Source: Anaeroplasma bactoclasticum (GTDB taxonomy: Bacteria > Bacillota_I > Bacilli_A > Acholeplasmatales > Anaeroplasmataceae). Taken from it: a stretch of 52,392 bases of DNA. The translations under genes and the position numbers were made by a program. The stretch lies in contig NZ_QXEV01000011.1 in NCBI RefSeq assembly GCF_003550015.1, positions 1 through 52,392 of the forward strand. Reading direction: 5' to 3'. This document shows, piece by piece, positions 341-50,077 of this stretch. The notes beneath the pieces were generated by a model. It was not told the origin of the DNA. It was given only the letters and a program-made list of their open reading frames with translations, and did no database searches. The stretch's first letter is position 1. Each line of letters begins with the position of its first letter.

Positions 341-811
341 ATGGATTTAATTGCTGAGATTATTTTTGGAATTCTTGAGCTATTGGATTGTCTTGGACCA
401 GTATGTTGTGAAATTGGTAAAATGGAAGCAAATCCAGAATCAAGAAAAAGAATTAAAATTTTTATACACATCCTTTTAGTTATACTTATAGCAGTATTAA
501 TAACAATTTCATTAGTTTATAGAAAAGGTATTTTTAGTATAGTTTCTGTATCTTATTTATGCTATGTTTCCTTATCTTATTATTTAATCTTTTTCTTTAG
601 AGAAATAATGTATAGACCTAGGGTAATTCCTTATGTTTTATGGCCATTAAGAATATTAAAATATGCCTTTGCAATTGCATTAATTGTTATGGCAAATCTA
701 TTATTAACTAATCCTTATGCTAAGGGATGGTTAATTGGTGGTGCAAGTGTAGCATTATTCTTTTATGTATGTATAGATATCCATAGAATTGCAAGATTCT
801 TTCAGGAGTAA
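341..811 (+). CDS. Small integral membrane protein of unknown function
   Basis: The start is the ATG at 341, 6 bases after AAGGTGGGA (326-334); a GTG 12 bases upstream overlaps that ribosome-binding site and is unlikely. The 156 residues begin with an acidic amphipathic stretch containing two adjacent cysteines (GPVCCEIG). Four hydrophobic segments follow at about residues 40-57, 61-85, 105-120 and 126-145, with basic residues between them (ESRKRIKIF, YRPR). I recognise no domain. It is monocistronic, between the hydF terminator and the structured locus at 815-1280. A role linked to that locus is possible only by proximity. Confidence 0.7.
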   Translation: MDLIAEIIFGILELLDCLGPVCCEIGKMEANPESRKRIKIFIHILLVILIAVLITISLVYRKGIFSIVSVSYLCYVSLSYYLIFFFREIMYRPRVIPYVLWPLRILKYAFAIALIVMANLLLTNPYAKGWLIGGASVALFFYVCIDIHRIARFFQE

Positions 812-821
812 TAATCACTTA

Positions 822-849
822 TTGAATATATACAAAAATATGCTATACT
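822..849 (+). promoter_or_regulatory. Promoter of short RNA copy A
   Basis: TTGAAT (822-827), 16-base spacer, TATACT (844-849) with a TGC extension just before the -10. It is nearly identical to the promoter at 952-979, exactly 130 bases downstream. Confidence 0.7.
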
Positions 850-855
850 ATAAGT

Positions 856-920
856 GTCTACGGAGACAACTTTAAGTTAAGAAAAGCGAAAAGGGATGAC
901 TGCAATCATCCCTTTTCTCA
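856..920 (+). ncRNA. Candidate antitoxin-like short RNA, copy A
   Basis: A promoter is followed about 65 bases later by a 12-bp hairpin (888-899 with 906-917, loop CTGCAA), with no start codon or ribosome-binding site between them. That predicts an RNA of about 62-65 nt. Its 5' part has GGAGACAAC and then ACAACTTTAAGTTAAGA (866-882). The latter repeats 1060-1076 with one difference, so this RNA can pair over 17 bp, one of them G-U, with the minus-strand toxin transcript made across 1060-1076. I infer a regulatory RNA acting on the toxin mRNA. The transcript ends are estimates. Confidence 0.55.
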
Positions 921-951
921 TTAGCGAGGACAAAAGTTTAATGGTTTCTTA

Positions 952-979
952 TTGAATAAATATAAAAATATGCTATACT
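952..979 (+). promoter_or_regulatory. Promoter of short RNA copy B
   Basis: TTGAAT (952-957), 16-base spacer, TATACT (974-979) preceded by TGC. Same layout as the promoter at 822. Confidence 0.7.
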
Positions 980-985
980 ATAATT

Positions 986-1050
986 GTCTTGAGGGACAAG
1001 TAGAGTTAAGAAAACGAAAAGGGATGACTGCAATCATCCCTTTTCTCATT
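986..1050 (+). ncRNA. Candidate antitoxin-like short RNA, copy B, convergent with the toxin mRNA
   Basis: This is the second copy of the 130-bp unit. Its 5' region (993-1014) has diverged from copy A, but it keeps GTTAAGAAAA and the same 12-bp hairpin (1016-1027 with 1034-1045). The hairpin is a near-perfect palindrome and also serves as terminator for the minus-strand toxin transcript, so the two RNAs would be fully complementary across it. RNA I and RNA II of the enterococcal par/Fst locus are arranged in this convergent way. No peptide is evident on the plus strand. Confidence 0.55.
1008..1050. terminator. Bidirectional hairpin terminator shared by short RNA B and toxin mRNA
   Basis: Stem GAAAAGGGATGA / TCATCCCTTTTC (1016-1027, 1034-1045). 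On the minus strand it is followed by CGTTTTCTT, a good U-tract; on the plus strand by TCATTTT, a weaker one. Confidence 0.65.
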
Positions 1051-1082
1051 TTGGAAGAAACAACTTCAAGTTAAGATCCTAT

Positions 1083-1154
1083 CTATCGATAGTTCTTCTT
1101 ATTCATGATAATGAGTAATTCCATTATCACAATAAGAATTATTAGGTAATCCAC
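1083..1154 (-). CDS. Small hydrophobic peptide, candidate type I toxin
   Basis: This 23-residue ORF starts at GTG 1154-1152, with a perfect AGGAGG (1166-1161) six bases upstream and an in-frame TAG just before the start, so it cannot extend. The peptide begins VDYLIILIVIMELLIIM and ends NKKNYR: one short membrane-spanning stretch and a basic tail, as in type I toxins such as Ibs or Fst. I see no clear homology to any one of them. The GTG is buried in an 8-bp hairpin (TATTAGGT / ACCTAATA, 1160-1153 with 1147-1140). The coding region holds a second hairpin (1093-1100 with 1131-1138; 1106-1113 with 1122-1129). Both would limit translation. Toxicity is inferred. Confidence 0.6.
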   Translation of the reverse strand: MDYLIILIVIMELLIIMNKKNYR

Positions 1155-1164
1155 CTAATACCTC

Positions 1165-1203
1165 CTAACTACCCGTTGTTTCCTCCGAGTAGAAGTTTAA
1201 CAT
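1165..1203 (-). CDS. Leader peptide ORF coupled to the hydrophobic peptide
   Basis: ATG at 1203-1201 is preceded by AGGAGGAG (1219-1212) at 8-10 bases and encodes MLNFYSEETTGS. Its TAG (1167-1165) overlaps the first base pair of the AGGAGG that serves the downstream peptide. A ribosome ending here would sit on and open the next start region. That is the logic of the mok leader and hok, where toxin translation depends on leader translation. The leader sequence itself looks unremarkable, so the act of translation is probably what matters. Confidence 0.5.
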   Translation of the reverse strand: MLNFYSEETTGS

Positions 1204-1227
1204 TCTGTTGTCTCCTCCTAAAATGAA

Positions 1228-1242
1228 CCATAAAAATATGGC
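1228..1242 (-). other. 5'-terminal stem-loop of the toxin transcript
   Basis: On the minus strand CCATA / TATGG flanks a four-base loop right at the predicted 5' end. Stable 5' hairpins of this kind protect type I toxin mRNAs; the protective role here is inferred. Confidence 0.4.
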
Positions 1243-1248
1243 AATATA

Positions 1249-1277
1249 ATCATACCATTTTTATAGTATGCATTCAA
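1249..1277 (-). promoter_or_regulatory. Promoter of the toxin transcript
   Basis: Minus strand TTGAAT (1277-1272), exactly 17-base spacer, TATGAT (1254-1249). Transcription would start near 1242 and run left to the hairpin at 1045-1016, giving an RNA of about 235 nt. Confidence 0.65.
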
Positions 1278-1324: not shown

Positions 1325-1347
1325 GTTAATATATGGAAGGATTTAAT

Positions 1348-2226
1348 ATGGAAAATAAATTTGGTGAAAAAATAAAAGAAATTAGAAAGAAAACAGGTTT
1401 AAATCAAGATGAGTTTGCAAAAGAATTAGGCTATACATCTAGATCTACAATTAATAAGATAGAAAAAGGCGTTAATGATATGAGCCAAGATAAGCTTGAA
1501 TTATTAATTCGTAAGTTTGATGTTGATGTAAACGAGTTATTTGACTCTTTAGTAAAAGATTCTAGTTCTCCTATTATAGATGAAAAGGGAATCAGAAATA
1601 TCAAAGTACCTGACCCCAATTATACATACCCTAAGGCTGGAATTTATAATATGAAAAATATAAAACCAACAATTACAAGGAGTAATATTATTGTTGGTGA
1701 TTATTCCTATTATAGTGGTAAGGATTTTGAAGCAAGAGTAACTCATCATTATGAATTTTTAGGTGACAAATTAATTATTGGTAAGTTTTGTCAAATTGGT
1801 AATAATATTGAATTCATTATGAATGGAGCAAATCATCAAATGAATGCAGCAACTACATTTCCATTTTATGTAATGGATGGTTGGAAACAAGAGTCTCCCA
1901 AAATATCTGATTTACCATTTAAAGGGGATACTATCGTTGGTAATGATTGCTGGATTGGGCAAAATGTTACAGTTTTACCTGGAGTTCATATTGGTAATGG
2001 GGTAATTATAGGTGCTGATTCTGTTGTGACAAAAGATTTACCAGCATATTCTATATGTTGTGGTAATCCATGTAGAGTAAAGAAAATGAGATTTAGTGAT
2101 GATATTATTAAAATCTTAGAAGAACTAAAATGGTGGGATAAAAGTGTAGATGAAATCCAAAAGATTATTCCTATCATTACAAAGGCAAATCCTACTAAAG
2201 AAGAATTAGAAGCATTATTAAAATAG
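1348..2226 (+). CDS. XRE-type HTH fused to a hexapeptide-repeat (Vat/CatB-like) acetyltransferase
   Basis: The 292-residue protein starts at ATG 1348, 7 bases after GGAAGG. Residues 5-62 are an XRE/Cro-type helix-turn-helix (KIKEIRKKTGLNQDEFAKEL, then the recognition region around SRSTINKIEKG). Residues 95-290 are a left-handed beta-helix acetyltransferase of the streptogramin/chloramphenicol type-B family, showing GDYSYYSG, a catalytic-type His in GANHQMN (H163), WIGQNVTVLPGV and GNPCRV. Such enzymes move acetyl from acetyl-CoA to a hydroxyl of an antibiotic or sugar. Related family members normally lack the DNA-binding domain. The NUDIX gene follows 8 bases later, so the two are an operon. 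Autoregulation and an antibiotic substrate are both guesses. Confidence 0.85.
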   Translation: MENKFGEKIKEIRKKTGLNQDEFAKELGYTSRSTINKIEKGVNDMSQDKLELLIRKFDVDVNELFDSLVKDSSSPIIDEKGIRNIKVPDPNYTYPKAGIYNMKNIKPTITRSNIIVGDYSYYSGKDFEARVTHHYEFLGDKLIIGKFCQIGNNIEFIMNGANHQMNAATTFPFYVMDGWKQESPKISDLPFKGDTIVGNDCWIGQNVTVLPGVHIGNGVIIGADSVVTKDLPAYSICCGNPCRVKKMRFSDDIIKILEELKWWDKSVDEIQKIIPIITKANPTKEELEALLK

Positions 2227-49845: not shown

Positions 49846-49851
49846 ACATAT

Positions 49852-50077
49852 AGTCAATGAAAAGGACAAGATATAAAGATTATTTTCTTTATAAGAGATG
49901 GCTAGAAGGTGAAAATGCCAAAGAAAACCTTTATATTACTACCTTGGAGATGAATGAAGGAAATGTCATTCCGTACGCTTGCGTTAAAAGCTTATTGAGT
50001 GTCAGGCTTTTTTAGCCTGGAAGATAAGGTGGTACCGCGATAATACGTCCTTAAGAATTTTCTTAAGGATTTTTTTT
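49852..50077 (+). promoter_or_regulatory. Thr T-box riboswitch leader
   Basis: A long stem I region (about 49870-49960) contains ATTACTACCTTGG, where ACC or ACT fits a Thr specifier. The T-box core AAGGTGGTACCGCG is at about 50026-50039. A terminator (TCCTTAAGAA / TTCTTAAGGA, 50048-50069) with eight T follows. Uncharged tRNA-Thr would favour antitermination. The terminator stem is almost the same as that of the trpS leader. Confidence 0.92.

What the first reader, a model, noticed from the sequence alone, without database searches (positions are those of the whole stretch)
1053..1219. Predicted 5'-3' closure of the toxin mRNA that hides its ribosome-binding sites
The motif GGAGGAAACAAC (minus 1186-1175) and GGAGGAGACAAC (1218-1207) contain the Shine-Dalgarno sequences. 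The 3' part of the same transcript contains GTTGTTTCTTCC (complement of 1053-1064). Either 5' motif can form 12 continuous pairs with it (one or two G-U). Short RNA A carries the same sense motif and would compete for this 3' segment. The peptide's GTG is also inside an 8-bp hairpin. 3' end trimming would therefore switch translation on, as known for hok and AapA mRNAs.
Basis: partly seen in the sequence, partly recalled or inferred. Interest (0 to 1): 0.75.

Follow-up and report, generated by a model that had tools for sequence, protein, structure and literature searches.

The report
Self-closing mRNA of a toxin-like peptide
A short bacterial mRNA for a toxin-like membrane peptide is predicted, with strong evolutionary support from 41 related copies, to tie its own two ends together so that ribosomes cannot start, while a small RNA made from the opposite strand pairs with the same knot; how the knot is opened remains unknown.

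Summary
The 12-nt motifs and their complement are at the stated coordinates, and the folded mRNA closes with a 19-bp 5'-3' helix (z = -9.5). The pairing recurs with different letters in 41 relatives from rumen Mollicutes-type genomes: each leader pairs better with its own 3' segment than with those of other clusters (0 of 20,000 permutations).

The interpretation needs correcting. Motif 1 carries the Shine-Dalgarno (SD) of a conserved 12-codon leader ORF, not of the toxin. Motif 2 lies inside that ORF and is no ribosome site. The toxin's own SD overlaps the leader stop, and its GTG sits in a local hairpin that opens little when the 3' end is removed. Closure therefore silences the leader, and the toxin presumably by coupling, as in mok/hok.

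The convergent short RNA carries the same sense motif, and its best site is that 3' segment in 44 of 45 loci. Trimming the segment away would open the mRNA and also delete the antitoxin target, so the hok/AapA scheme does not transfer directly.

No RNA or toxicity data exist. This is a new variant of type I toxin-antitoxin systems, absent from Pfam, NCBIfam and Rfam at their cut-offs.

The parts
1249..1277 (-). toxin mRNA promoter: TTGAAT, 17 nt, TATGAT with TG before the -10; start about 1242
   Evidence: consensus scan; similar elements in relatives; start site inferred
1006..1242 (-). predicted toxin mRNA, about 237 nt, with a small 5' hairpin at 1242-1227
1207..1226 (-). 5' arm of the closing helix; contains motif 1 (1218-1207), the Shine-Dalgarno of the leader ORF
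   Evidence: fold; conservation
1165..1203 (-). leader ORF MLNFYSEETTGS, 12 codons plus TAG; the stop overlaps the toxin SD
   Evidence: (41 of 45 relatives have such a leader; shuffles 2.3 +/- 1.5, maximum 7)
1175..1186 (-). motif 2 GGAGGAAACAAC inside the leader ORF, in the loop of hairpin 1192-1187/1174-1169; alternative partner of the 3' segment
1161..1166 (-). toxin Shine-Dalgarno AGGAGG
   Evidence: sequence
1140..1160 (-). start-codon hairpin UAUUAGGUG-GAU-UACCUAAUA holding the GTG
   Evidence: partial covariation
1083..1154 (-). toxin-like peptide, GTG start, MDYLIILIVIMELLIIMNKKNYR, 23 aa
   Evidence: family alignments; toxicity untested
1046..1076 (-). 3' hub segment: 1076-1062 pairs with the free part of RNA A, 1064-1046 pairs with the leader
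1016..1045 (.). bidirectional terminator shared by the toxin mRNA and RNA B
   Evidence: found on both strands
952..1050 (+). short RNA B: promoter 952-979, start about 986; 5' part only partly matched to the 3' segment (-19.4 kcal/mol)
822..922 (+). short RNA A: promoter 822-849, start about 856, terminator 888-917; 5' part well matched to the 3' segment (-28.2 kcal/mol)

Best explanation
This is a chromosomal type I toxin-antitoxin-like locus. The full-length toxin mRNA folds so that a 3' segment just before its terminator pairs with the 5' leader and hides the Shine-Dalgarno and start of a short leader ORF. The toxin is probably made only when that leader is translated, because the leader stop overlaps the toxin SD and the toxin GTG is locked in its own hairpin. 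The closed mRNA is therefore silent. The convergent short RNA binds the same 3' segment, with a second contact at the shared terminator. Its most likely effect is repression, by RNase III decay of the duplex and/or by keeping the mRNA in the leader-SD-closed fold: in the window, RNA A with its 5' hairpin intact occupies 1076-1062, leaves the leader SD paired and blocks the alternative fold through motif 2. Shown by sequence analysis: the pairings and their coevolution, the leader ORF, the shared terminator. Inferred: the transcripts themselves, leader-toxin coupling, repression by the short RNA, toxicity. What opens the mRNA is open: 3' trimming, refolding between the motif 1 and motif 2 states, or loss of the antitoxin.
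For: Fold z -9.5. Own versus swapped partners across 17 sequence clusters: motif 1 -16.9 against -11.4, motif 2 -20.1 against -12.3, antitoxin -21.0 against -8.5 kcal/mol, each 0 of 20,000 permutations. All 41 relatives are predicted to pair leader and 3' segment by at least 8 bp; the leader site costs a median 7.4 kcal/mol to open in full-length RNA and 3.2 when trimmed. Leader ORF in 41 of 45 against 2.3 +/- 1.5 in shuffles; the best antitoxin site is the 3' segment in 44 of 45. G-U exceeds A-C mismatches beyond the swapped null for all three pairings, p about 0.03, 0.03 and 0.006. A second copy in the same genome uses other letters and is orthogonal.
Against: There is no expression, probing, processing or toxicity data; transcript ends are inferred. 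In 13 of 41 relatives the ensemble favours motif 2, which leaves the leader SD less protected. If the antitoxin pairs over its whole length it would open the leader rather than close it, so its sign of action is not settled by sequence. The leader peptide sequence is not conserved between subfamilies, so coupling rests on ORF position alone. Permutation and Fisher values do not correct for shared ancestry within clusters.
Confidence: 0.7

Rival explanations
1. hok/AapA-type two-step control: a 3' exonuclease removes the 3' segment, which activates the mRNA, and the antitoxin then silences the active form.
For: In a truncation series the leader site opens from about 11 to about 3 kcal/mol once the 3' end passes 1054-1072. 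Same logic as hok (PMC4147584) and aapA (PMC6733600).
Against: The only long antitoxin site is the segment that would be removed (44 of 45 loci), so a trimmed mRNA could no longer be silenced. Gram-positive type I mRNAs such as par and txpA appear to lack processing (PMC11228461).
Confidence: 0.25
2. The short RNA is an opener: being a same-sense copy of the leader region it competes for the 3' segment, frees the leader SD and so activates translation of the peptide.
For: Maximal pairing lowers the median leader-site cost from 7.2 to 3.0 kcal/mol, like deletion of the 3' segment.
Against: With the antitoxin's 5' hairpin kept (predicted in 38 of 42) the window mRNA stays closed. The convergent antisense layout matches known repressing antitoxins, and a long duplex should attract RNase III.
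Confidence: 0.1
3. TxpA/RatA-like: the only relevant act is 3'-UTR pairing followed by RNase III decay; the 5'-3' closure merely keeps a silent pool.
For: Convergent RNAs overlapping at their 3' ends are usual for Gram-positive type I systems, and RatA acts by decay (PMC4147584).
Against: Does not by itself explain the coevolution of two leader motifs with the 3' segment.
Confidence: 0.3
4. DNA-level inverted repeats (element ends or protein sites), with RNA pairing incidental.
For: Inverted repeats of this motif family are present around the gene.
Against: G-U excess over A-C on the toxin strand, position locked to the leader SD and terminator, different letters in each subfamily.
Confidence: 0.03

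Closest known systems
hok/mok/Sok (plasmid R1)
   Same: leader ORF needed for toxin translation and a full-length mRNA folded 5' to 3' that ribosomes cannot use (PMC4147584)
   Different: here the antitoxin binds the 3' segment, not the leader; no sequence relation; convergent shared terminator; 23-aa peptide; trimming not shown
aapA/IsoA (Helicobacter)
   Same: 5'-3' long-distance interaction hides a Shine-Dalgarno (PMC6733600)
   Different: there the toxin's own SD is hidden and 3' truncation activates; here a leader ORF is the target and the antitoxin shares the 3' segment
par / Fst (RNA I and RNA II, pAD1)
   Same: convergent RNAs of similar size, shared bidirectional terminator, direct repeats read in opposite directions, 5' helix on the toxin mRNA (PMC7472228)
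   Different: the repeat on the toxin mRNA is in the 3' UTR, not at the toxin start; leader ORF and 5'-3' closure; the peptide lacks the Fst/Ldr signature
txpA/RatA and bsrG/SR4 (B. subtilis)
   Same: antitoxin pairs with the toxin mRNA 3' region; SR4 also tightens the distant ribosome site (PMC4147584)
   Different: peptide unrelated; no leader ORF or 5'-3' closure is described for these in the review passages read
timP/TimR
   Same: control by switching between exclusive mRNA folds without processing (PMC11228461)
   Different: timP uses a pseudoknot and no leader coupling, and TimR binds the 5' UTR

Membership tests
type I toxin-antitoxin system | short hydrophobic peptide gene with a convergent or antisense small RNA complementary to its mRNA | tested here: met
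   (sequence level only)
type I toxin-antitoxin system | peptide toxic when produced alone and neutralised by the small RNA | not testable with these tools
   needs expression in a laboratory strain
hok/sok | leader ORF upstream of and coupled to the toxin | tested here: inconclusive
   ORF and stop position conserved in 41 of 45; coupling itself untested
hok/sok | antitoxin complementary to the leader (mok) region | tested here: not met
   best site is the 3' segment in 44 of 45
hok/sok and aapA | 5'-3' fold-back hides a ribosome site | tested here: met
   predicted folds and coevolution
hok/sok and aapA | activation by 3' trimming | not testable with these tools
   no RNA data; only shows what trimming would do to the fold
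par/Fst | convergent promoters, bidirectional terminator, direct repeats flanking it | tested here: met
par/Fst | direct-repeat pairing at the toxin initiation site | tested here: not met
   pairing is in the 3' UTR
par/Fst | Fst/Ldr peptide signature (PXXXG-type motif, W before a charged tail) | tested here: not met
   alignment; no Pfam or NCBIfam assignment
any Rfam family | match above gathering score | tested here: not met

The most novel reading that the evidence does not exclude
One 3' hub serves three same-sense partners: the leader SD (motif 1), the leader body up to the toxin SD (motif 2), and the small RNA, which imitates the leader. The mRNA switches between two closed folds without processing, and the small RNA works as an allosteric lock (or key) by taking half of the hub, not by covering a ribosome site.
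Probability: 0.3. Interest if true: 0.78.

Novelty: new variant of a known kind. Interest (0 to 1): 0.62.

Why it matters
It appears to join two control schemes so far described apart: hok-like leader coupling with 5'-3' closure, and par/txpA-like convergent antitoxins acting at the 3' end. It occurs in a family of small peptides that none of the libraries searched names. Dozens of natural variants with different letters, two of them orthogonal in one genome, make the rules of pairing testable. It also offers a candidate for toxin-mRNA control by refolding without processing, a question raised openly for Gram-positive systems (PMC11228461).

Tried and rejected
BLASTN of the locus against plasmids and phages found nothing. 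The peptide-pattern scan of named genomes confirmed nothing, probably because the start is GTG and the peptide is short; a DNA pattern gave names instead. Rfam at permissive thresholds gave only chance-level hits. A DNA-level inverted-repeat reading was tested through G-U versus A-C mismatches and disfavoured. The idea that the antitoxin targets the leader was tested and rejected. A simple hok-type trimming model was kept only as a rival because trimming would delete the antitoxin site. A covariance model was not built, since the swap test needs no alignment of divergent motifs. AlphaFold was not run: a 23-aa hydrophobic helix would not settle the question.

Full report
What was checked. The closing helix is longer than stated: 1226-1220 with 1052-1046 and 1218-1207 with 1064-1053, 19 pairs, plus an inner 5-bp helix. 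Without the 3' segment the leader opens.

Anatomy. The minus-strand promoter is at 1277-1249. Behind a small 5' hairpin come motif 1, a leader ORF at 1203-1165 (MLNFYSEETTGS), the toxin SD at 1166-1161 overlapping the leader stop, and the 23-aa hydrophobic peptide from GTG 1154 to stop 1083. Then follow the 3' segment and a terminator (1045-1016) that also scores as a terminator on the plus strand. Two plus-strand short RNAs, A and B, come from tandem copies. So motif 1 carries a Shine-Dalgarno, but of the leader, and motif 2 lies inside the leader ORF. The toxin's own site is held mainly by its start-codon hairpin: opening cost 9.1 kcal/mol full length, 7.1 without the 3' segment. The leader site costs 10.9 and 3.1.

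Relatives. DNA and profile searches found the same module across the genus, the family and part of the order. Named hits are metagenome-assembled genomes, several from rumen, most labelled Acholeplasmatales. Forty-eight distinct loci encode peptides of the form M[ED][YFS]L[IV]. The start codon is GTG in the window's subfamily and ATG in many others. Terminator, convergent promoter and antitoxin 5' region were delimited for nearly all (two terminator assignments fixed by hand, three unusable loci dropped). Four distant members in another family of the class were also found, and two of them show 5'-3' complementarity by eye with unrelated letters; these were not tested further.

Is the closure selected? 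In 41 loci with all parts, the leader and the 3' segment were paired with own and foreign partners. Over 17 sequence clusters the own pairing is better for motif 1 (-16.9 against -11.4 kcal/mol), motif 2 (-20.1 against -12.3) and the antitoxin (-21.0 against -8.5); none of 20,000 permutations reached the observed values. All 41 are predicted to pair leader and 3' segment by at least 8 bp; 28 favour motif 1 and 13 motif 2. The leader ribosome site is harder to open by more than 2 kcal/mol in 31 of 41. Mismatches in these duplexes are G-U rather than A-C more often than in swapped pairs (50:15, 53:12 and 41:15; one-sided p 0.027, 0.028, 0.006), as expected for RNA on the toxin strand. The excess is modest and ancestry is not corrected for. 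The window's genome holds a second copy (L111) whose parts pair among themselves but poorly with the window's, for example antitoxin -26.9 against -5.7 kcal/mol.

Leader ORF. A start with SD, 8-20 codons and a stop next to the toxin SD is found in 41 of 45 loci, against 2.3 +/- 1.5 (maximum 7) in 300 shuffled sets. The reading frame shifts between close relatives (L004 against the others) while the ORF stays closed at nearly the same place. This suggests that translation up to the toxin SD matters more than the peptide. That is inference; coupling was not tested.

The small RNA. It is a same-sense copy of the leader motif, and its best site is the 3' segment in 44 of 45 loci. In the window RNA A is well matched (-28.2) and RNA B less so (-19.4). 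The 3' segment is a hub with three exclusive or partly exclusive partners. If RNA A keeps its predicted 5' hairpin it occupies about 1076-1062 and leaves the leader SD paired (leader-site cost 13.5); if it pairs maximally the leader opens (5.0). Across the set the medians are 7.2 unbound, 5.4 with the hairpin kept, 3.0 with maximal pairing and 3.1 with the 3' segment removed. Sequence alone does not fix the sign of its action. Repression through RNase III decay or through locking is preferred because the layout matches known antitoxins (PMC4147584, PMC7472228).

The trimming claim. But the same cut deletes the only long antitoxin site. In hok the antitoxin acts on the trimmed mRNA. A literal hok scheme would leave the active mRNA unregulated, so trimming is one of several ways out of the closed state and is not shown.

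Comparison. By working parts this resembles hok/mok (leader coupling, fold-back), aapA (5'-3' interaction) and par (convergent RNAs, shared terminator, direct repeats). It meets no single definition: the antitoxin does not target the leader, the repeat pairing is not at the toxin start, and the peptide has no Fst/Ldr signature and no convincing Pfam, NCBIfam or PHROGs match. Rfam has no match to the module. A literature search found no paper joining type I systems and Anaeroplasma; one paper states that type I systems are known in Tenericutes, and in the passages read it does not name these (PMC12390103). The library holds only open papers, so absence is weak evidence.

Limits. Transcripts, their ends and toxicity are unproven. 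Energies are nearest-neighbour predictions for isolated RNAs. Named relatives are metagenome bins. The taxonomic placement rests on those named relatives, not on the window's own record.

Noticed in passing
window 809-941 (plus strand): The RNA A unit carries a decayed copy of the 3' hub beside its terminator (minus strand, about 941-919), so it looks like a duplicated module that lost its toxin; L032 has a similar tandem antitoxin unit.
   Followed up: partly
L111 1501 (G000 contig 36, 10355): A second, orthogonal copy of the module in the same genome: MEYLIILVIMLYIIYKDNRGGTSKK with a 12-codon leader MFLKRSEETMND.
   Followed up: partly
window 1333-2226: Gene next to the toxin promoter fuses an HTH (XRE-type) domain to a hexapeptide acetyltransferase of the Vat kind, below the Vat family cut-off; L004 has a similar HTH reading frame beside its toxin copy.
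   Followed up: no
L109, L110, L113, L118: Related peptides in another family of the class; L109 and L113 show 11-nt 5'-3' complementarity with unrelated letters.
   Followed up: partly
L030 (minus strand, toxin start 1030): Copy whose leader SD and motif 1 have been replaced; probably an inactive or truncated member.
   Followed up: no
window 49848-50055: T-box leader (Rfam RF00230).
   Followed up: no
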